NCBI RefSeq assembly: GCF_024166365.1
Contig: NC_064826.1
Span: 19,058,001 to 19,122,000, forward strand
Direction of reading: 5' to 3'
Length of the DNA: 64,000 nucleotides
DNA from: Elephas maximus indicus
Lineage: Eukaryota; Chordata; Mammalia; Proboscidea; Elephantidae
Shown here: piece by piece, positions 6,446-64,000 of the stretch
Layout: every line of letters begins with the position of its first letter
Numbering within the stretch: the first letter of the stretch is position 1
Position numbers and translations under genes: made by a program
The notes under the pieces: generated by a model
Databases searched by the model: none
What the model saw: the letters and a program-made list of their open reading frames with translations, nothing else
Told to the model about the DNA's origin: nothing

Positions 6446-7747
6446 TAAATACATAAATACAGTATTATACTGATAAAAGTCTTGGTATTTACATGTGTCA
6501 TTTGTACTGGTCCCTGACAAGCGTTTACCTAATTTATTGAACTACTCCTCTGCTGATATTTAACTTGGTCCTTATTTTTCACTACCACAAACGATACATT
6601 AATAAAAACTCTTTTGTAGACATCTTTGTGCATCTCATTAACAATCTGAGGTAGCAGATGACACCACCTTGCTTGCTGAAAGTGAAGAGGACCTGAAGCA
6701 CTTACTGATGAAAATCAAAGACCACGGCCTTCAGTATGGATTACACCTCAACAGAAAGAAAACAAAAATCCTCACAACTGGACCAATGAGCAACATCATG
6801 ATAAACGGAGAAAAGACTGAAGTTGTCAAGGATTTCGTTTTACTTACATCCACAAATCAACACCCACGGAAGCAGCAGTCAAGACGTCAAACGATGTATT
6901 GCACTGGGCAAATCTGCTGCAAAGGACCTCTTTAAAGAAACAATATTACTGAGTCAAAAGCTACGTACATTTAAGTTTTTGAGAGCTACTGCCAAATTCT
7001 CTCTCAGTTATACCAATGTACACATTTTCAAAACCACAGGGGTATCTGTTTTCTCGTACCTTTACTAATTTTGAGTTTTAACAGTCCTTAAAAGTTTCAT
7101 CTACCAGACAGCTGAAAATATATTGTTTCTAATTAGTAGCTCATTGATTGATAGTGAGGTTGTGAATCTTTTCATATGTTTATTGAACATACGATTTCTT
7201 TCTGTGAACTCCCTGTTCATATCCTCTTTCCATTTGTCTATTAATTATTTATCTTTTTCTTATTGATTTGTAGACACTCCCTGTTTTATGGATCTTAACT
7301 GTTTGTTACATACGCTGAATACATATGCACACAATCTGTGGCCTGATTTTTAAGCTTGTTTGTGGTGACGTTTGTCATAGCAAAATTTTCTGTTTTGTAG
7401 TAGTCAAATCTGTGAGTCTTTTCCTTCATGGATCCTGGGTTTCACGTCTTCCTTTCCTACTGCACAATTATAAAGATAGCCTACTTTTTTTCACAACACT
7501 TTTAAAATTCACATTTAAAATCTCACTCTTGGTGGTATGTCACTCTTGAGTTTTAACAAATGTACACGACCACGTAACCACCACCACAAACAAGATACAG
7601 GATGGTTGTAACACCTCCAAACTTCCTTCATGCCCTTCTCTCCATCAGCCCAGCCCATGGCAACCACGCATCTGTTTTCAAGGCATTTCTATAGTTTTGC
7701 ATTTTCCAGAAGGCTTATAAATGAAATCATAAACTATGTAGCCTTTT
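6446..7747 (-). mobile_element. Old L1 (L1M-type), left part of a split copy
   Basis: Minus-strand L1M 3' sequence. The recognisable UTR region at 7556-7740 includes 'aaccaccaccacaaacaaga' and 'ggcaaccacgcatctgtttt'. It is interrupted by an RTE fragment at 6641-6938 and again at 7747. It appears to resume at 12339, because the last bases (tatgtagcctttt) are repeated there. Confidence 0.65.
6641..6938 (+). pseudogene. RTE-type LINE reverse transcriptase fragment
   Basis: Plus-strand remnant of an RTE/BovB-like reverse transcriptase, open from 6669 for 88 codons. The left edge encodes VADD where RTE elements have the catalytic YADD, followed by TTLLAESEEDLKHLLMK. The downstream KTKILTTGPMSNIMINGEK segment is also typical. 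The frame shifts near 6830 and the element lacks its own 3' end, so it is a broken internal piece lying inside the old L1. Confidence 0.8.
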
Positions 7748-7754
7748 TAAAATT

Positions 7755-8296
7755 TGTTATTTTTAGGTGCCGTTGAGTCAGTTCTGACTCATAGTGACTC
7801 TATGTACAACAGAACAAAACACTGCCCGGTCCTGCGCCATCCTCACAATCGTTGCTATGTTTAAGCCCATTGTTGCAGCCACTGTGTCGACTGATCTTGT
7901 TGAGACTTTTCCTCTTTTTCTCTGACCCTCTACTTTACCAAGCATGATGTCCTTCTCCAGGGATTAGTCTCTACTGATAACATGTCCAAAGTAAGTGAGA
8001 CATAGTCTCACCAACTTTGTTTCTAAGGAGCATTCTGGATGTACTACTTCCAAGACAGATTTGTTCGTTCTTCTGGCAGTCCATAGTATATTCAATATTC
8101 TTCACCAACGTGATAATTCAAAGGCATCAATTCTTCTTCTGTCTTCCTTATTCATTGTCCAGCTTTCACATGCATATGAGACGATTGGAAATACCATGGC
8201 TTGGGTCTGGCACACCTTAGTCCTCAGAGTGACATCTTTGCTTTTTAGCACTTTAAAGAAGGCAGCAGATTTGCCCATGCAATACATTGATTCCTA
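7755..8296 (-). mobile_element. RTE-type LINE, 3' part (left piece of a split element)
   Basis: Minus-strand RTE: the 3' terminus is at left (ggtgccgttgagtcagttct), then the C-terminal coding region. Reading minus, a 61-codon open frame (8102-8287) matches the post-RT region with SYACESWTMNKEDRRRIDAF. The element stops at 8296 and continues at 10311 with exactly the next part of the family sequence, so these are one RTE split by a 2-kb insertion. Confidence 0.85.
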
Positions 8297-8359
8297 TTTT
8301 TTTTTTAAGCAAAAAGCAAGTTTTATTTGGCATATATATATTCAAAACGGCAAAAGTAG

Positions 8360-8640
8360 GAAAATGGACAAGCATGCTGCCAGAGCTAATGTCTGCCCAA
8401 ATCCGAGGAGATAACACATAACAGACAAAGGTTAGAAAACAGACAAGCATGCTACCACAGCCATGTCTGCCCAAGTTCAGAGAATATTACAGAATAGGCA
8501 AGAATGGGAAAACAGACAAGCAAGCTGCCACAGCCACGTCTGCCCAAGTTCAGAGAATATTACAGAATAGGCAAGAATGGGAAAACAGACAAGCATGCTG
8601 CCACAGCCATGTCTGTCTGAGTCCAGAGAAAGTTAGAGTC
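8360..8640. repeat. 73-75-bp tandem repeat, four copies, in the ERV LTR
   Basis: Units start at 8360, 8435, 8508 and 8581, giving periods of 75, 73 and 73 bases. Each opens with 'gaaaacagacaagc' or a close variant and continues 'atgctgccacagccatgtct'. Copies two and three are almost identical, the first is diverged and the fourth incomplete. Direct repeats in a U3 region often act as viral enhancers; here that is inference. Confidence 0.9.
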
Positions 8641-9572
8641 ATCAGTGTATATTAACATTACAAAATGGGCATAACCATTGAAAGCTTCACCTTTGCACAG
8701 ATTGGCTAGAAACTGTGATCCCTACATTTTGCATCGCCTTTCTTAACAACCATTGGTGCAGGTTTCAGTAATGACAGTCAGGAGGGTCTTCATTGGTCCA
8801 ACAGATTTTCTATTCACTAAATGCTAATAGAAAAAGAGTTGAATGTCTTTTGTGTTCTGTTTGATTGGCTTATGTGAAAGGTTTCCTAAAAGATATTTTC
8901 CAAGATTATTCTATTGTCTTTATACCTCAGGGCCCAATTGACATGTCCTTGTGAGCCCTTGTGGGCCCAGCTCCAGCTGGGTCACATTCTCTATGCTTAT
9001 GAACAGGGAATAATGATTCTAATATTACTTCCTAAATCATTCCCTCCTTTTGATCGGAGATTGGAGATAACACATCAAAGATCAATACCTGGACTTAGTG
9101 AAGCTCCTAGATGGTGGCCACTGCAGGCCCTTTAAACTCACAGTGCTGGTTTTCCACCAGATACCATTTGGTTCTTCACCAGGATCTTAAGTAAGAGCAA
9201 TGTTCTCATCAATCACATTGCCGGGGTGAGTGGACTCAACAAGCATCAATATTTTAGCCCGAGGCCTCTTAAGTGTGTAAGACGATAGAAGATAAATTTT
9301 ACTATGCCTAATACTATCGGGATACAGAGTAAGAATACTGCTATCCCTTGCAGTAGTGATTAGCCCATGTACATATTCCTGATGGCATCCAACCAAATAA
9401 ATCTGGTGTTTGTAAGGGTGTTGTAAGGGTGAGTAACCAGGTAGCTTGCTGTCTAACTCTACGTATACCTTGTTCTACTTCTCCTGTGTTATTTACTCAA
9501 ATGCAACAGGAGGTATTTGCTACAGCACAGACTATGCTTTCTTGGACTAATAAAAAATCTAAGGCTGTTTTG

Positions 9573-9773
9573 TTACTTTATGTCACCTTGGCTTAATGAG
9601 GTCAGAGATTGCTGTAGTGTTTCCATTCCGTTAGCAACTTCGTCTGTTATTTGTCCCAGAGTGACTGATAAATTTCTTAAAGATTTTTCCAATTCAATTA
9701 TATCATAAGTGGTAATTAAATCTACCAACCATACCCTGAGTGTTGGACCAATGAGTTTTCTTCTGACTTTCAT
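9573..9773 (-). pseudogene. ERV transmembrane env fragment
   Basis: A 66-codon open stretch whose middle has the leucine-rich heptad spacing expected of the N-terminal coiled coil of a retroviral transmembrane subunit (LEKSLRNLSVTLGQITDEV). It stops before the immunosuppressive/disulfide region, and the next segment is out of frame. The membrane span and cytoplasmic tail lie further left at about 9390-9190, with an internal stop just before the span. It is a dead fragment. Confidence 0.65.
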
Positions 9774-10100
9774 TTTACAATGTGTAACAAATTAACATTA
9801 CCTTTCCAGTATTTACTAGCACCATTACTATGAACATCTAAAGGTAATCCTAAGATTCCCAAAGTGCACTGCCCACCCATTTGTCAGGAGTCTAAAGAAG
9901 AGATTGCCCGCATAAATTCCGTCAGTTGGAAAGGGATCATCTAAATTAGTATAGTTGGATCTGCCACATAAAAACACATATCCATAAGAAGCACACAGTT
10001 TGTCTGAAGAAAACAGAAGGTATAGAAAAATTTACATGGGACAAACAAGTTGTCATTAAAGAATACACGATGAGCAAGATAATACAGGATGGCATTGTTT

Positions 10101-10310
10101 CATTGCTTTTTTTTCTTTTAATTTTTATTGTGCTTTAAGTGAAAGTCTACAAATCAAGTCAGTTTCTCATACAAAAATTCATATATATACTTGCTATATA
10201 CTCCTAGTTGCTCTTCCCCTAATGAGACAGCACACTCCTTCTCTCCACCCTGTATTTCCGTTTCCATTCAGCCAGCTTCTGTTCCCCTCTGCCTTCTCAT
10301 CTCCCCTCCA
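10101..10310 (-). mobile_element. Young-type L1 3' UTR fragment
   Basis: Reverse copy of the elephant L1 3' terminus: a T-rich start, then 'attgtgctttaagtgaaagt', 'caaatcaagtcagtttctca' and 'aatgagacagcac', ending 'catctcccctccag'. About 200 bases, so heavily 5'-truncated. The same terminus begins the L1s at 50110 and 60856. It sits between the retroviral copy and the continuing RTE. 'ttgattcct' (left of the poly-T at 8297) and 'ttgatttct' (right of this piece) may be its duplication. Confidence 0.85.
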
Positions 10311-11501
10311 GATATTTGATTTCTTGACAGCTACTTCCATGAACGTTGACTGTGGATGCGAGTAAAAGGAAATCCTTGACAACTTTGATCTTTTCTTCGT
10401 TTATCATGATGTTGCTGACTGGTCCAATTGTGAGGATTTTGATTTTCTTTATGTTGAGGATTAATCCATACTGAAGGCTGTAGACTTTCATCAGTAAACG
10501 CTTCAACTTCTCTTCCCTTTCACCTAGCAAGGTTCTATCATCTGCGTATTGCAGCTTGTTAATGAGTCCTCCAATCCTGATGCCACATTCTTCTCCATAT
10601 AATCCAGCTTCTCGGATTATTTGCTCAGCATACAGACTGAGTAAGTATGGTAAAAGGATACAACCCTGACACACATCTTTCCTGATTTTAAACCATGAGG
10701 TATCCCCTTGTTCTGTTCAAACGACTGCCTCTAGGTCTATGTACAGGTTCCTCATGAGCACAATTAAGCATTCTGGAATTCCCATTTTTTGCAATGTTAT
10801 CCATAGTTTGTTATGATCCACATAGTCAAATGCTTTAGCATAGTCAACAAAACATGGGTAAACATCTTCCTGGTATTCTCTGATTTCAGCCATGATCCAT
10901 CTGACATCAGCAATGATATTCCTCGCCCTACATCCCCTTCTGAACCCAGCTCAAATTTCTGGCAGTTCTCTGTCAATGTACTGCTGCAACTGTTTTTGAA
11001 TTATCTTCAGCAAAATTTTACTTGTGTGTGATATTAATGATATTGTCGATAATTCCGAGTTCTGTCGGATCACCTTTCTTTGAAACGGGCACAATATGGA
11101 TCTCTTCCAGTCAGTTGCCCAGGTAGCTGTCTTCCAGATTTCTTGGCATAGATGAGTGAGAACCTCCAGCGTTACATCCCTTTGTTGAAATACCTCAGTT
11201 GGTATTCCATCGATCACTAGAGCCTTGTTTTGTGACAATGCCTTCAGTACATCTTAGATTTCTTCCTTCAGTACCATCGGTTCTTGATCATATACTGCCT
11301 CCTGAAATGGCCGAACATCAACCAATTCTTTTTGGTACAGTGATTCCGTGTATTCCTTCCATCTTCTTTTGATGCTTCCTGTGTCATTCAATATTTTGCC
11401 CACAGAATCCTTCAATATTGCAACTTGAGGCTTAAGTTTTTTCTTCAGTTCTTTTCAGCTTGTATATTTCATTATAATGCTTTGCTTTCTCAAGCCGCCT
11501 G
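10311..11501 (-). pseudogene. RTE-type LINE reverse transcriptase (right piece of the split element)
   Basis: Minus-strand continuation of the RTE begun at 7755. A 125-codon open stretch (10297-10674) contains the C-terminal half of the RT palm, with catalytic YADD in LQYADDRTLLGEREEK, preceded by GCILLPYLLSLYAEQIIREA, the family's QGC-to-AEQI region. A further 95-codon stretch (10951-11238) is the N-terminal RT region, including KALVIDGIPTEVFQQ and CQEIWKTATWATDWKRS. Frames are shifted relative to each other, so it is inactive. RTE elements encode endonuclease plus RT and are thought to supply the machinery for SINEs sharing their 3' end. Confidence 0.85.
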
Positions 11502-21268: not shown

Positions 21269-21713
21269 ACAGTGGGATGCAGATCTCAAATTCTTGTAAA
21301 AAGACCAGGCTTAATGGTCTCCCTGAGACTAGAGGGACCCTGGAGTTCATGGTCCCCAGACCCTTTGTTAGCCCAAGACTGAAACCATTCCTGAAGCCAA
21401 CTCTTCAGACAGAGACTGGCCTGGACTATAAGATAGATAATGATACTGGTGAGGAGTGAGCTTCTTGGCTCAAGTAGACACATGAGACTATGTGGGCAGC
21501 TCCTGTCTGGAGGGGAGATGAGAAGGAAGATGGAGGCAGCAGCTGGTCGAATGGACACGGGGAATACAGGGAGGAGAGGAGGAGTGTGCTGTCTCATTAG
21601 AGGGTGAGCTGCTAGGAGTACAGAGCAAGGTGTGTATAACTTTTTGTATGAGAGACTGACTTGATTTGTAAACTTTCACTTAAAGCACAATAAATAATTT
21701 TTTTTAAAAAAAG
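21269..21713 (+). mobile_element. L1 3' UTR, 5'-truncated
   Basis: Plus-oriented elephant-type L1 3' end. It starts with 'agtgggatgcagatctcaaa', contains 'ctgtctggaggggagatgag' and 'tgacttgatttgtaaacttt', and ends with 'cacttaaagcacaataaata' and a T/A-rich tail. It corresponds to the complement of 60880-61300. No target-site duplication was obvious. Confidence 0.85.
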
Positions 21714-28247: not shown

Positions 28248-28249
28248 GC

Positions 28250-28280
<31 letters not shown>

Positions 28281-28286
28281 GCGGCG
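28248..28286 (+). repeat. GCG trinucleotide tract in the KLF14 5' flank
   Basis: (GCG)9 at 28248-28274, then two GCA and two GCG units and more GC-rich sequence. The tract is about 130 bases upstream of the KLF14 ATG, probably in the 5' UTR. Such runs are length-variable and can form stable RNA structure. No ATG lies between it and the KLF14 start. Confidence 0.85.
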
Positions 28287-28404
28287 GGCGGCGCTCGGCT
28301 CCTGCGCGGCTCTGCCAGGCGGCGGGACGGACGCGCCCGAGGACTCGCGCGCCCGCGGCCGGCCGCGCTCTGACGGCGCCGGCGGGCGCCCCGGCGGGGC
28401 CGGC

Positions 28405-29337
28405 ATGTGGGCAGCCAGCGCGTGCCTGGACTACTTCGCCGCCGAGTGCCTGGTGGCCATCGCCGCGGGCGCCGTGGTGCACCGCCGCCCGCCGGACCCC
28501 GAGGGCGCGGCTGCCACCACTGCGGGTGCGGATGAGGGAGCGGCGGGGCCCGAGCGCGCCGGACCGGGACCCCCGGGGTCCGCCGTGCCGCCCCTGTTCC
28601 CCTGGGCTCGCGCGCCCAGCCCCGGCGCGGCCGCCGCCTCCGCGCCCCACCTGCTGGCTGCCAGCGTCCTGGCCGGGTGGCGCGGCGCCTCCGAGGTGGG
28701 CTCCGGGGAGACCTCGGGGGCCGCCCTCCCGGCCCCGGCCGACGCCCGCGGCCTGCCCACCGCCGCCTGCCCGGCCCCGGCCACTAGTGCGGCCTCACTC
28801 TCCGGCCCCCCGCGTTCCTCAGCCGTGGGTTCTGGCCCAGATTCCAGCTCCGACGTGTGTCCCGGGACGGCTGGGGCCCCGGGCGCCGGCCCTGCCCCAG
28901 CCGTGGGCCCCGGGCCCCGCCGGCGACCAGTCACACCTGCTGTCAAGCGCCACCGCTGCCCCTTCCCTGGCTGCACCAAAGCCTACTACAAGTCGTCGCA
29001 CCTCAAGTCCCACCTGCGCACCCACACAGGTGAGCGCCCTTTCTGCTGCGACTGGCTCGACTGCGACAAGAAGTTTACGCGCTCCGACGAGCTGGCCCGC
29101 CACTACAGGACGCACACGGGCGAGAAGCGCTTCTCCTGCCCGCTCTGCCCCAAGCAGTTCTCTCGCAGCGACCACCTGACCAAACATGCCCGCCGCCACC
29201 CAGCCTATCATCCTGACATGATTGAGTACCGGGGGCGCCGTCGTACACCCCGCGTCGTCGACCCTCAACCCGCAAGCCTAGAGGACAGCTCCGACCCCAG
29301 CCGCTCCCAGGTGTCCAGCTTCACTACCAGCCTGTAG
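28405..29337 (+). CDS. KLF14: Kruppel-like factor 14 (single-exon zinc-finger transcription factor)
   Basis: Encodes a 310-residue nuclear DNA-binding protein of the BTEB-like KLF group (KLF9/13/14/16). The N-terminus (residues 6-28, [10 protein letters not shown] and VVHRR) is the Sin3-interaction-type helix. Residues 30-175 are Ala/Pro/Gly-rich and poorly conserved. Three C2H2 fingers follow: C185-C190-H203-H207, C215-C220-H233-H237 and C245-C248-H261-H265, joined by HTGE linkers and contacting GC/GT boxes through the KSSHLK, RSDELAR and RSDHLTK helices. The tail keeps [16 protein letters not shown], typical of KLF14/16. The human protein, as I recall, is 323 residues, so the difference is in the low-complexity middle. 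The start is chosen because [10 protein letters not shown] begins six residues in, as in other KLF14 proteins; the context is G at -3 and T at +4. The frame is intact with no intron, as expected for this KLF16-derived retrogene. Known roles are repression or activation of metabolic genes, notably in fat, with maternal-allele expression. KLF16 or KLF13 is less likely because those genes have introns and different middles. Confidence 0.95.
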
Positions 29338-40560: not shown

Positions 40561-41181
40561 CAGTTGAAGACTGAAGTTGTCAAGGATTTCATTTTCCTTG
40601 GATCCACAATCAATGCTCATGGAAGCAGCAGTCAAGAAATCGAACAATGCATTGTGTTGGGCAAATCTACTGCAAAAGATCTCTTTAAAGTGTTCAAAAA
40701 GCAGGTATGTTACTTTAAGGTCTAAGGTATGCCTGACCCAAAACATGGTGTTTTCAATCGCCTCATATGCATGTGAAAGTTAGGCAATGAATAAAGAAGG
40801 CTGAAGAATTGATGCCTTTGGGTTATGGTGCTGGTGAAGAATATCGAATATACCATGGACTGCCAGGAGAACGAGCAATTCTGTCTTGGGAAGAAGTACA
40901 GCCAGAATGCTCCTTAGAAACAAGGATGGAGAGACTTCGTCTCACATACTTTGGACATATTATCGGGGGGACAAGTCCCTGAAGAAGGACATCACAATTG
41001 GTAAAGTAGAGGGTCGGCAAAAAAGAAGACCTTCAGCTAGATGGACTGACACAGTGGCTGCAACAATGGGCTGAAGCATAACGATGACACTGAGGATAGC
41101 GTAGGATGGGGGAGTGTTTCGTTCCGTTGGACACAGGGTCACTGTGAGTCAGAACCAACTCCATGGCACCTAAAAACAACA
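40561..41181 (+). pseudogene. RTE-type LINE, C-terminal coding region and 3' end
   Basis: Plus-strand RTE from 'actgaagttgtcaaggattt' to the 3' terminus 'agtcagaaccaactccatgg' and an A/C-rich tail. Open pieces encode EVVKDFIFLGSTINAHGSSS near the start (40456-40725) and, in a different frame, FSIASYACES at 40783 and then the IGKVEGRQK region (40886-41074). Frameshifts and a stop after the ACES motif make it inactive. The RT catalytic region was not copied. Confidence 0.85.
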
Positions 41182-41845
41182 AGCCAAACAGGCTTCGGAG
41201 CCGATTTTGAAAATCAAAAGCTAAATTATGGTCATTATCTACATTTGCATGCCTGCTGTGACAATCCTCGTGCTCCTGGGGGAAATAGATGCCACTGGCT
41301 GAAAAGGGAACAGCCACAGGGATGAAAACAAAGGAAAAATAAAAATCACACTAATATTTTTCAAAACTTATTTTCTCCCTCACACCTGGGTTTTAGTCTG
41401 GATAAAGGTTAATCCTGAGTTCTAACTAAGCAAATATCTTTTTCTCTCTAACAAATTGGATCCTTACAAGAAAACAGACTTAATGAATGTAAATAAAACA
41501 AAAGCAAGCTCTAAACTGTCTCCTGTAGACCCCTGGCCTCAGGAAAATCCGCTGGGGGAGGAAGGATTATAGCTATTATTGCTCCAATCAGGCTATGGCA
41601 CAGTAGTTGGTGGGGAGGGGTCCATCAGCATCCTGTCACCCAGCTGGTCCCCAAGGAGGTCTGGGTCCACTCATCCAGTCAAGAGAGATGGCAGCAACTC
41701 GGTGGGTGGGGTCCAGCAGGTGTCAGCGGTGGATTGGGCTGGAGTGCATCTAGCAGCCCCAGAGGCAGTACCAGGGGCTTTTTCCTCCTGGCTGTGTGTG
41801 GTCAGGGCTTTTGTGTAAAATCACCGGGCTGTCATGGGCTGGGTC
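41182..41845. other. No gene seen
   Basis: Unique-looking sequence, partly G-rich (41600-41830). Frames at 41579-41818 and 41734-41952 overlap and are unsupported. Confidence 0.5.
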
Positions 41846-60855: not shown

Positions 60856-63800
60856 TTTTTTAAATAATTTTTATTGAGCTTTAAGTGAAAGTTTACAAAT
60901 CAAGTCAGTCTGTCACATATAAGCTTATATATGCCTTACTCCATAAAAAAACTCCCACTTATTCTCCCCCTAATGAGTCAGCCCGCTCCCTCCTTCCAGT
61001 CTCTCCTTTTGTGACGGTTTTGTCAGTTTCTAACCCTCTCTACCCTCCTATCTCCCCTCCAGACAGGAGATGCCAACACGGTCTCAAGTGTCCACCTGAT
61101 ACAAGTAGCTCAGTCTTCGTCAGCATCTCTCTCCAACCCATTGTCCAGTCCCTTCCATGTCTGATGAGTTGTCTTTGGGCATGTTTCCTGTCCTGGGCCA
61201 ACAGAAGGTTTGGGGACCATGACCGCCGGGATTCCTCTAGTCTCAGTCAGACCATTAAGTCTGGTCTTTTTATGAGAATTTGGGGTCTGCATCCCACTGA
61301 TCTCCTGCTCCCTCAGGGGTTCTCTGTTGTGCTCCCTGTCAGGGCAGTCATCGGTTGTGGCCGGGCACCATCTAGTTCTTTGGGTCTCAGGATGATGTAA
61401 GTCTCTGGTTCCTGTTGCCCTTTCTTTCTCTTGGGCTCATAGTTATCATGTGACCTTGGTGTTCTTCATTCTCCTTTGATCCAGGTGGGTTGAGACCAAT
61501 TGATGCATCTTAGATGGCCGCTTGTTAGCATTTAAGACCCCAGACGCCACTTTTCAAAGTGGGATGCAGAATGTTTTCATAATAGAATTATTTTGCCAAT
61601 TCACTTAGAAGTCCACTTAAGAAATGGTCCCCAAACGCCTGTCCTTGCTCCGCTGACCTTTGAAGCATTCAGTTTATCCCGTAAACTTCTTTGCTTTTGG
61701 TCCAGTCCAGTTGAGCTGACCTTCCGTGTATTGAGTATTGTCCGTTCCTTCACCTAAAGTAGTTCTTATCTACTAACTAATCAGTAAATAACCCTCTCCC
61801 ACCCTACCTCTCTCCCCCCATCGTAACCACAAAAGTATGTGTTCTTCTCAGTTTATACTATTTCTCAAGATCTTATAATAGTGGTCTTATACAATATTTG
61901 TCCTTTTGCCTCTGACTAATTTCGCTCAGCATAATGTCTTCCAGGTTCCTCCATGTTATGAAATGTTTCACAGATTCGTCACTGTTCTTTATCGATGCGT
62001 AGTATTCCATTGTGTGAATATACCACAACTTATTTAACCATTCATCCGTCGATGGACACCTTGGTTGCTTCCAGCTTTTTGCTATTGTAAACAGAGCTGC
62101 AATAAACATGGGTGTGCATATATCTGTTTGTGTGAAGGCTCTTATCTCTCTAGGGTATATTCCGAGGAGTGGGATTTCTGGGTTGTATGGTCATTCTATT
62201 TCTAACTTTTTAAGAAAACGCCAGATAGATTTCCAAAGTGGTTGTACCATTTTACATTCCCACCAGCAGTGTATAAGAGTTCCAATCTCTCCGCAGCCTC
62301 TCCAACGTTTATTCTTTTGTGTTTTTTGGATTAATGCCAGCCTTGTTGGAGTGAGATGGAATCTCATCGTAGTTTTAATTTGCATTTCTCTAACGGCTAA
62401 TGATCGAGAGCATTTTCTCATGTATCTGTTAGCTGCCTGAATATCTTCTTTAGTGAAGTGGGTGTTCATATCCTTTGCCCACTTCTTGATTGGGTTGTTT
62501 GCCTTTTTGTGGTTGAGTTTAAACAGAATCATATAGATTTTAGAGATCAGGCGCTGGTCAGAGATGTCATAGCTGAAAATTCTTTCTCAATCTGTAGGTG
62601 GTCTTTTTACTCTTTTGGTGAAGTCTTTAGATGAGCATAGGTGTTTCATTTTTAGGAGCTCCCAGTTACCTGGTTTCTCTTCCTCATTTTTGGTAATGTT
62701 TTGTATTCTGTTTATGCCTTGTATTGGGGCTCCTAACATTGTCCCTATTTTTTCTTCCATGACCTTTATCGTTTTAGTCTTTATGTTTAGGTCTTTGATC
62801 CACTTGGAGTTAGTTTTTGTGCATGGTGTGAGGTAGGGGTCCTGTTTCACTTTTTTGCAAATGGATATCCAGTTATGCCAGCACCATTTGTTAAAAAGAC
62901 TATCTTTTCCCCAATTAACTGACACTGGGCCTTTGTGAAATATCAGCTGCTCATACGTGGATGGATTTATATCTGGGTTCTCAATTCTGTTCCATTGGTC
63001 TATGTGCCTGTTGTTGTACCAGTACCAGGCTGTTTTGACTACTGTGACTGTATAATATATTCTAAAATCAGGTAGAGTGAGGCCTCCCACTTTCTTCTTC
63101 TGTTTCAGTAATGCTTTACTTATCCGGGGCTTCTTTCCCTTCCATATGAAGTTGGTGATTTGTTTCTCCAACACATTAAAAAATGTCATTGCAATTTGGA
63201 TCGGAAGTGCATTGTATGTATAGATGGCTTTGGGTAGAATAGACATTTTTACTGTGTTAAGTCTTCCTATCCATGAGCAAGGTATGTTTTTCCACTTAAG
63301 TAGGTCCTTTTTAGTTTCTTGCAGCAGTACTTCGTAGTTGTCTTTGTATAGGTCTTTTACATCTTTGGTAAGATTTATTCCTAAGTATTTTATCTTCTTG
63401 GGGGCTACTGTGAATGGTATTGATTTGGTGATTTCCTCTTCGATGTTCTTTTTGTTGATGTAGAGGAATCCAAGTGATTTTTGTATGTTTATTTTATAAC
63501 CTGAGACTCTGCCAAACTCTTCTATTAGTTTCAGTAGTTTTCTGGAGGATTCCTTAGGGTTTTCTGTGTATAAGGTCATGTCATCTGCAAATAGAGATAC
63601 TTTTACTTCTTCCTTGCCAATCCGGATGCCCTTTATTTCTTTGTCTAGCCTAATTGCTCTGGCTAGGACTTCTAGCACAATGTTGAATAAGAGTGGTGAT
63701 AAATGGCATCCTTGTCTGGTTCCCGTTCTCAAGGGAAATGCTTTCAGGCTCTCTCCATTTAGAGTGATGTTGGCTGTTGGCTTTGTATAAATGCCCTTTA

Positions 63801-64000
63801 TTATGTTGAGGAATTTCCCTTCAATTCCTATTTTGCTGAGAGTTTTTATCATAAACGGGTGTTCGACTTTGTCAAACGCCTTTTCTGCATCAATTGATAA
63901 GATCATGTGGTTTTTGTCTTTTGTTTTATTTATATCGTGGATTACATTAATGGTTTTTCAAATATTAAACCAGCCTTGCATACCTGGTATAAATCCCACT
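60856..64000 (-). pseudogene. Younger L1 with long ORF2, running off the window
   Basis: Minus-strand L1. The A-tail complement at 60856 is followed by the 3' UTR (60880-61872, 'attgagctttaagtgaaagt'), then the ORF2 C-terminus at 61873-62109 (LWYIHTMEYYASIKNS). The longest open stretch is 439 codons (62587-63906): a first RT motif at residues 4-16 ([13 protein letters not shown]), FADD at residues 106-109, and WRGCGEIG-type sequence further on in a second stretch (62191-62532). In-frame stops lie at its end (62584-62586), between residues 'LEIE' and 'PYN' near 62190, and at about 63957-63959, so ORF2 is dead but recently so. The endonuclease lies beyond the right edge. Confidence 0.9.

What the first reader, a model, noticed from the sequence alone, without database searches (positions are those of the whole stretch)
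8297..10100. Retroviral env-LTR copy that ends in a poly(A) tail
Read on the minus strand, env, polypurine tract and U3 are followed by AATAAA and, 15 bases later, ten A residues, with no U5 beyond. That is the structure of a polyadenylated retroviral RNA, not an integrated provirus. It suggests LINE-mediated copying of an ERV transcript, as known for some human ERV-W copies, here in an afrotherian.
Basis: partly seen in the sequence, partly recalled or inferred. Interest (0 to 1): 0.75.

Follow-up and report, generated by a model that had tools for sequence, protein, structure and literature searches.

The report
LINE-copied endogenous retrovirus RNA fragment
A broken piece of an ancient retrovirus in this mammal's genome was written back into DNA from a polyadenylated RNA, most likely by the cell's LINE-1 jumping-gene machinery rather than by viral integration, and it is one of about a hundred or more such copies, a behaviour described mainly for one human retrovirus group.

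Summary
Observation confirmed, interpretation supported. On the minus strand the ERV piece runs from 10092 (env) through a polypurine tract and U3-R to ten A (8306-8297). Full LTR copies in the same genome run on at this point, without an A run, into about 33 bases of U5. R+U5 patterns number 1294, R+poly(A) 102, reversed controls 0. Poly(A)-ended copies have varied 5' ends and long target duplications there (median score 8.0 against 5.75, P = 2e-7); 8 of 22 LTR copies read by eye show perfect 4-base duplications. One copy about 6.4 kb long has R-U5 at its 5' end and a 13-base duplication. Five of six starts at a U3 repeat unit carry an extra, cap-like G against 1 of 98 internal units. Poly(A) ends scatter on the LTR tree like shuffled labels. 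The window copy lies behind an older LINE-1 end inside an RTE element; a target copy between them favours two successive insertions. Closest known: HERV-W processed pseudogenes. Nine literature searches listed no non-primate case that I recognised (partial library). At least 26 of 84 listed internal-bearing places outside one tandem array are poly(A)-ended; 55 were not read.

The parts
8297..8306 (-). Poly(A) tail, ten A
   Evidence: Read; full LTR copies have U5 here instead.
8322..8327 (-). AATAAA polyadenylation signal (inside R, if R starts at the last U3 repeat unit as in the C8 copy)
   Evidence: Read; conserved in most matched letters; C8 copy starts 73 bases before its AATAAA.
8307..9039 (-). 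3' LTR, U3-R only (U5 missing)
   Evidence: The nine LTR-only loci start at query positions 60-64 (window 9041-9037; five of nine at 9039); those that reach R share similarity to 8307.
8359..8630 (-). 73-base tandem repeats (3.7 copies) within the LTR
   Evidence: Tandem Repeats Finder.
9040..9051 (-). Polypurine tract AAAAGGAGGGAA
   Evidence: Read; PPT-LTR pattern found at 170 places in the genome, reversed control 0.
9052..10092 (-). Broken env 3' part, 5'-truncated at 10092; CX6CC stretch in the open piece 9497-9577
   Evidence: Similarity to 11 of 20 other loci starts at 10089-10092. Window pieces give no Pfam match above cut-off; the corresponding piece of copy L010 hits the Syncytin-2 transmembrane part in PDB, E = 0.0017.
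10093..10108 (-). Copy of the RTE target site between LINE-1 tail and ERV start; its last 9 bases (10101-10093, GAAACAATG) are read as the 5' copy of the ERV target duplication
   Evidence: 14 of 16 bases equal the RTE copy in L038 (best of four RTE copies tried); 90 of 20000 composition shuffles score as high.
8285..8293 (-). 3' copy of the ERV target duplication, GAATCAATG
   Evidence: 8 of 9 bases equal 10101-10093 (sequences printed).
10109..10312 (-). Older LINE-1 3' end with A-rich tail (neighbour, not part of the ERV copy)
   Evidence: 83% identical over 209 bases to window 21506-21713 and similar to further 3' ends in the window.
10315..10700 (-). RTE-type element, upstream half of the split target (extends further)
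   Evidence: Matches window 6634-6891 and 40567-40644; the ORF 10297-10674 matches RVT_1 at E = 7.5e-7, 29.5 bits, just under the curated cut-off of 29.6.
7700..8284 (-). RTE-type element, downstream half of the split target
   Evidence: Matches 40645-41182, which directly follows 40644, so an uninterrupted site exists in another copy.

Best explanation
A transcript of an endogenous retrovirus with a gammaretrovirus-like env ended at the polyadenylation site in the R region of its 3' LTR. LINE-1 proteins copied it into DNA by target-primed reverse transcription: nick in an A-rich site, priming on the poly(A) tail, copying through R, U3, polypurine tract and part of env, stop at 10092, joining with duplication of the target. 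In this window the site was the border between the A tail of an older LINE-1 end and the RTE element that carries it. Shown by sequence: U3-R-poly(A) structure, absence of U5, existence of U5 in full LTR copies, varied 5' ends and long target duplications across the family, one long copy with R-U5 at its start, many copies that are not one clade. Inferred: that LINE-1 rather than another reverse transcriptase did it, and that at the window the LINE-1 end was there first.
For: U5 follows R in full LTR copies, poly(A) in the others, at the same place. 102 against 1294 places, reversed controls 0 and 0. Among 30 poly(A)-ended loci the 5' limit, where it could be set, varies from 135 to more than 1500 bases before the R end. 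Target duplications at 21 of these limits: median score 8.0 against 5.75 for 420 swapped pairs, 12 of 21 at or above the null 95th percentile, 9 of 21 at or above the 99th, P = 2e-7. Of 15 loci, four show long duplications at the 5' limit: L016 16 of 16 bases, L020 14 of 15, L029 12 of 12, L030 13 of 13. Tail start differs among the 30 loci by at least four bases, as in RNA 3' ends. The C8 copy (ends read only) starts 73 bases before AATAAA, runs into U5, ends in poly(A) 6387 bases on, and has an exact 13-base duplication; the longest chance match against 30 other flanks was 11. Extra G at 5 of 6 such starts against 1 of 98 internal repeat units, P = 4e-7. On a tree of 57 LTR pieces the poly(A) label needs 18 changes; shuffles average 19.2. 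Of 28 internal-bearing copies among the 40 scored rows, 19 end in poly(A), the window copy included; of 9 LTR-only copies checked none does (P = 0.0004).
Against: The window copy's own duplication is degraded (8 of 9, or 11 of 16 with the preceding bases), and its A tail is only ten bases beside an A-rich neighbour. 9 of the 21 tested loci scored below the null 95th percentile, and 9 of the 30 loci were left out of that test (limit outside the locus or unclear). In 11 of 15 loci no duplication was found at a recognised limit (in several the limit lies outside the locus). The endonuclease motif was judged by eye only. The six starts with the G test were picked after seeing them, and L054, L060, C7 and C8 were added by eye. 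Two of the 19 poly(A) calls are irregular (L029 has T before the A run, L095 an altered R end).
Confidence: 0.95

Rival explanations
1. One insertion made both neighbours: a LINE-1 / ERV chimera, by template switch from the ERV RNA to a LINE-1 RNA, or a LINE-1 transcript that read through its own end into an ERV and stopped at the LTR signal (3' transduction).
For: LINE-1 end and ERV lie between two copies of the same RTE sequence. LINE-1 chimeras are known (PMC13174262, abstract and section list seen).
Against: A third copy of the RTE target lies between LINE-1 tail and ERV (moderate statistics, 90 of 20000 shuffles), and the ERV start coincides with its end; a single insertion leaves it unexplained. 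L049 and L052, also behind LINE-1 tails, show weak A-rich repeats of the flank at the junction, as insertion into A tails would give, but one search's scores overlap its null.
Confidence: 0.12
2. A truncated provirus: normal integration, later loss of U5 by deletion, the A run being target DNA (for example the LINE-1 tail).
For: A LINE-1 A tail is at hand on the upstream side.
Against: The same kind of end recurs at 102 places, with different flanks in the 30 read, varied 5' ends and long duplications.
Confidence: 0.03
3. A DNA-level family: one poly(A)-ended copy arose and was then multiplied by segmental duplication or as its own repeat family.
For: Tandem multiplication of this ERV does occur (array on C1).
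Against: 5' limits, tail start sites and flanks differ from copy to copy, and poly(A) copies are scattered on the LTR tree (18 changes, 175 of 500 shuffles as low; but well-supported branches alone force only 3).
Confidence: 0.03

Closest known systems
HERV-W processed pseudogenes (human and other catarrhine ERV-W)
   Same: 3' LTR ends at R, poly(A) tail, variable target duplication, 5' R-U5 in long copies (here seen in one, C8), mix of proviral and LINE-1-made copies. PMC5016936 gives 135 processed, 65 proviral, 13 undefined of 213, with 5-15 base duplications and a TT/AAAA motif (passages seen).
   Different: Different host; relation of the ERV to ERV-W not tested. Here at least 26 of 84 listed internal-bearing places outside the C1 array are poly(A)-ended and 55 were not read.
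Platyrrhine ERV-W-like elements
   Same: ERVs with LTRs in a LINE-1-bearing mammal genome.
   Different: PMC6995185 reports no processed copies there (passages seen); the present family has many.
Ordinary LINE-1-made processed pseudogenes
   Same: Poly(A), 5' truncation, long A-starting target duplication (general features recalled).
   Different: The template is a retroviral transcript that ends in an LTR.
LINE-1 chimeric insertions (PMC13174262, abstract and section list only)
   Same: LINE-1 3' end next to another transcript-derived piece.
   Different: A target-site copy separates the two pieces here, so successive insertions fit better.

Membership tests
LINE-1-made ERV processed pseudogene (HERV-W type) | 3' LTR has U3-R and lacks U5 | tested here: met
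   U5 present in full LTR copies, absent in the window.
LINE-1-made ERV processed pseudogene (HERV-W type) | Poly(A) tail after R | tested here: met
   A10 at 8306-8297; 102 places in the genome.
LINE-1-made ERV processed pseudogene (HERV-W type) | Target duplication of about 5-15 bases | tested here: met
   Window 8 of 9 bases (degraded, by eye); family 12 of 21 above the null 95th percentile; L016, L020, L029, L030 of 15; C8 13 bases exact.
LINE-1-made ERV processed pseudogene (HERV-W type) | TT/AAAA-like endonuclease site | tested here: inconclusive
   By eye several clear cases start with A after T or C (L038 CATT/AAAAAACAGC, L031 TGTT/AAATG); no statistics made, and in the window the site is inside an A tail.
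LINE-1-made ERV processed pseudogene (HERV-W type) | 5' end is R-U5 in long copies, or a 5' truncation | tested here: met
   Window truncated in env at 10092. C8 copy starts 73 bases before AATAAA with U5 behind it. C7 copy starts 222 bases before AATAAA, three units up, so its start holds some U3 repeat.
ERV-W group | Sequence relationship to HERV-W | not tested
   No HERV-W sequence was held or typed; the PDB hit of a relative's env piece was Syncytin-2.
Provirus / solo LTR | Complete U3-R-U5 LTR with short (4-base) duplication | tested here: not met
   Window lacks U5. LTR copies of the family do show it: perfect 4 of 4 in 8 of 22 read by eye (L004, L012, L014 of 9; L063, L084, L087, L089, L090 of 13 outside the array).
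LINE-1 chimeric insertion | LINE-1 and partner joined inside one target duplication with nothing of the target between them | tested here: not met
   RTE target copy between them, 14 of 16 bases.

The most novel reading that the evidence does not exclude
A gammaretrovirus-like ERV lineage outside primates, not known to be ERV-W, had its RNA captured by LINE-1 so often that poly(A)-ended retrocopies make up a third to two thirds of its loci that keep internal sequence. In addition the LTR itself seems to make short capped, polyadenylated RNAs of about 240-315 bases, from a U3 repeat unit to the R site of the same LTR, which were retroposed like a SINE (L042, L051, L054, L060). LINE-1 capture would then be a repeatable property of certain ERV lineages rather than a HERV-W peculiarity.
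Probability: 0.5. Interest if true: 0.65.

Novelty: new member of a known kind. Interest (0 to 1): 0.54.

Why it matters
A 2017 review calls HERV-W the sole human ERV group specifically mobilised by LINE-1 (PMC5537654, passages seen). Its close relatives in New World monkeys show no processed copies, and the authors can only speculate on unidentified sequence differences or low LINE-1 activity (PMC6995185, passages seen). A second, apparently independent family with many such copies gives a comparison that could show which RNA or expression features let LINE-1 take up retroviral transcripts. It also warns that poly(A)-ended copies of this family should not be dated by LTR-LTR divergence or counted as viral integrations.

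Tried and rejected
Internal A run in the LTR: rejected, because full LTR copies lack it. Single LINE-1/ERV chimera or 3' transduction: considered because both pieces lie between RTE halves; made less likely by the target copy between them. The genome search for another such junction (window:9850-10320:-) did not complete. A free search for target duplications over 1300 bases upstream was too weak (observed scores overlap the swapped-pair null), so the test was repeated at the 5' limits only. A search for a duplication of L041 in 4.5 kb upstream found none. Pfam on the window's env pieces gave nothing above its cut-off; one piece had a weak PDB hit to a designed coiled coil, E = 0.0085; TLV_coat on the L010 piece was E = 0.25, below the curated cut-off. 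A protein search with that piece found nothing. Phage collection: no match. L046, L049 and L052 were first taken for a host gene ended by an LTR; they are LINE-1 3' ends next to, or about 100 bases from, the LTR piece. A census of 3' ends that ignores the 3' end in the query stayed incomplete: 170 PPT-LTR places exist, 100 are listed, 16 of these lie in the C1 array; of the other 84, 26 end in poly(A), 3 have U5, 55 were not read.

Full report
What is there. On the minus strand the window reads: RTE element to about 10315; a LINE-1 3' end 10312-10109 with A-rich tail; 16 bases 10108-10093; env remnants from 10092; polypurine tract 9051-9040; LTR from 9039 with 73-base repeats; AATAAA at 8327-8322; last R base 8307; ten A at 8306-8297; then RTE again. 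The RTE halves match another copy in the window that is uninterrupted at this point (40567-40644 followed by 40645-41182). The 5' limit of the ERV part was set by comparison: in 11 of 20 other internal-bearing loci the similarity begins at 10089-10092, and by eye those 11 continue upstream in a common sequence. So the ERV piece is 8297-10092.

Is the missing U5 real? The genome that holds the window was searched with 9100-8297 (40 places scored of 3357 candidates; 30 loci). Full copies continue after R with about 33 bases of U5 that end in CTACAACA or similar, and have no A run. A pattern for R+U5 finds 718 + 576 = 1294 places, one for R+poly(A) 51 + 51 = 102 places, up to 3 mismatches each, reversed controls 0 (100 places listed in each). 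The 102 is a lower bound: the list holds 13 of the 19 internal-bearing poly(A)-ended copies.

Mechanism of the family. In the 30 poly(A)-ended loci L031-L060 (five of them are places also found) the A residues begin after GCTT, GCTTTA, GCTTTAC or GCTTTACT, with a few irregular ones, as alternative RNA 3' ends would. The 5' limit, where it could be set, varies from 135 to more than 1500 bases before the R end. At 21 limits (nine loci left out: limit outside the locus or unclear; two of the 21, L057 and L059, lie so near the locus edge that they may not be true limits) the flanks were compared with the sequence behind the tail. The median score was 8.0 against 5.75 for 420 swapped pairs; 12 of 21 reach the null 95th percentile and 9 of 21 the 99th; P = 2e-7. 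Clear cases are L035 (15 of 15), L038 (13 of 13), L053 (15 of 16), L054 (13 of 14), L058 (18 of 20), and, 4 of 15 loci: L016 (16 of 16), L020 (14 of 15), L029 (12 of 12), L030 (13 of 13). In contrast, LTR copies with U5 show perfect 4-base duplications in 8 of 22 read by eye. Of the 40 scored places, 28 carry internal sequence: 19 end in poly(A) (the window included; L029 and L095 irregular), 9 in U5; nine LTR-only places checked all have U5, three were not checked (P = 0.0004). These places were chosen for similarity to a poly(A)-ended query, so a pattern that ignores the 3' end was used as well. PPT-LTR junctions: 86 + 84 = 170 places, 100 listed. Sixteen lie in the tandem array on C1; of the other 84, 26 have poly(A), 3 have U5, 55 were not read. 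So at least 31% of these are poly(A)-ended.

A full-length case and the RNA start. When I checked this report I crossed the listed U5 places outside the array (83 of the 100 listed, themselves only the exact matches of 1294) with 80 of the 100 listed poly(A) places and found two same-strand pairs 6366 (C7) and 6387 (C8) bases apart. Only the ends were read. The C8 copy begins 73 bases before AATAAA, runs into U5, ends in poly(A), and is flanked by an exact 13-base duplication, AAGCCAACTTTTT; the same 5' flank shares at most 11 bases with 30 other 3' flanks. That is the R-U5 ... U3-R-poly(A) form. The C7 copy begins 222 bases before AATAAA at another repeat unit, with RTE-like sequence on both sides and AAGATGGAAGG / AAGATCAAGG at its ends by eye. 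Four short copies, L042, L051, L054 and L060, also begin at a repeat unit (three of 13 limits inside the LTR lie within 2 bases of a unit start, P = 0.005 under a rough uniform model; L054's start was placed by eye behind its duplication). At these six starts GGACT or GAACT is preceded by G in 5; at 98 internal unit starts by G in 1 (TT 75, CT 19, TC 3, TG 1; P = 4e-7). An extra G is what copying of an RNA cap gives (recalled). The six were picked after seeing them. I read the unit start as the transcription start, so some short copies are whole LTR-only transcripts rather than truncated ones. This raised my confidence in RNA copying from 0.93 to 0.95 and interest from 0.52 to 0.54.

Many events, not one. 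A tree of 57 LTR pieces (29 poly(A), 28 U5; left out: 16 of the 30 loci L031-L060 as repeats, too short or unclear, L061, L062, and array copies other than L065 and L066) needs 18 changes of the label; 500 shuffles average 19.2 and 175 are as low. Well-supported branches alone force only 3, and the bootstrap had not settled. The median end branch is 0.089 changes per site, so the copies are old, tens of millions of years at usual mammalian rates (rate recalled).

The window copy's own site. The 16 bases between LINE-1 tail and ERV equal the RTE target of L038 in 14 of 16 places (best of four RTE copies); 90 of 20000 shuffles do as well. The last nine, GAAACAATG (10101-10093), pair with GAATCAATG (8293-8285) behind the A tail. 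The same RTE bases also stand before the LINE-1 end (AAGAAATCAAA). I read this as LINE-1 first, with its duplication, and then the ERV copy at the LINE-1 tail / RTE border, with a second duplication. L030 is a poly(A)-ended copy in another RTE at the same bases without a LINE-1 end, with a 13-base duplication. L049 and L052 also lie at LINE-1 tails.

What virus. Window env pieces give no Pfam hit above cut-off. A stop-to-stop piece of copy L010 matches the Syncytin-2 transmembrane subunit at E = 0.0017 and has a CX6CC stretch; the window piece 9497-9577 has the same motif. That suggests a gammaretrovirus-like env (motif meaning recalled). Downstream of the LTR in most array copies stands TGGCGTAGTCG, in L085 an altered form, which resembles a tRNA-Ser primer site (recalled, untested).

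Against what is known. HERV-W is the described case: 135 processed copies of 213, with U3-R, poly(A), 5-15 base duplications (PMC5016936, passages), called the sole human group so mobilised (PMC5537654, passages). It occurs through catarrhines (PMC5775608, passages) but was not found in platyrrhine relatives (PMC6995185, passages). Pavlicek 2002 was not held. Nine answered searches listed none that I recognised as reporting such copies in elephants, afrotherians or other non-primates; for most hits only titles and abstract starts were seen, and the library lacks most subscription journals.

Verdict. The finding is right, and its real interest is that the window copy is one of about a hundred or more. 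It is a new member of a known kind; the share of the family made this way, and the short LTR-only copies, remain the open points.

Noticed in passing
G000 C1:82.7-87.4 Mb (L065-L081): Tandem array of this ERV: many same-strand exact R-U5 matches, often about 100-130 kb apart, with a U5-bearing LTR 5.3-5.4 kb before the PPT in 8 of 12 places compared, so a large unit carrying a short provirus was multiplied.
   Followed up: partly
L042, L051, L054, L060: Short poly(A)-ended copies (237-315 bases) that start at a U3 repeat unit with an extra G: they look like whole LTR-only transcripts retroposed like a SINE.
   Followed up: partly
L049, L052 (and L046, with about 100 bases between): Poly(A)-ended LTR pieces behind LINE-1 3' ends, like the window copy; LINE-1 A tails may be frequent landing sites.
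   Followed up: partly
L030 and window 8285-10108: Two poly(A)-ended copies landed at the same bases of two different RTE copies.
   Followed up: partly
8359-8630: 73-base tandem repeats in the LTR whose number varies between copies; the unit start seems to be the transcription start.
   Followed up: partly
28405-29337 (+): Uninterrupted 310-residue ORF with C2H2 zinc fingers that looks like an intronless KLF14-type gene (name recalled), with GCG repeats nearby at 28248-28293.
   Followed up: no
62587-63906 (-): 439-residue open stretch of LINE-1 ORF2 with RVT_1: comparatively well preserved.
   Followed up: no
most array copies (L066-L081) and L085, after the LTR: TGGCGTAGTCG (altered in L085) five bases after the LTR, resembling a tRNA-Ser primer binding site (recalled).
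   Followed up: no
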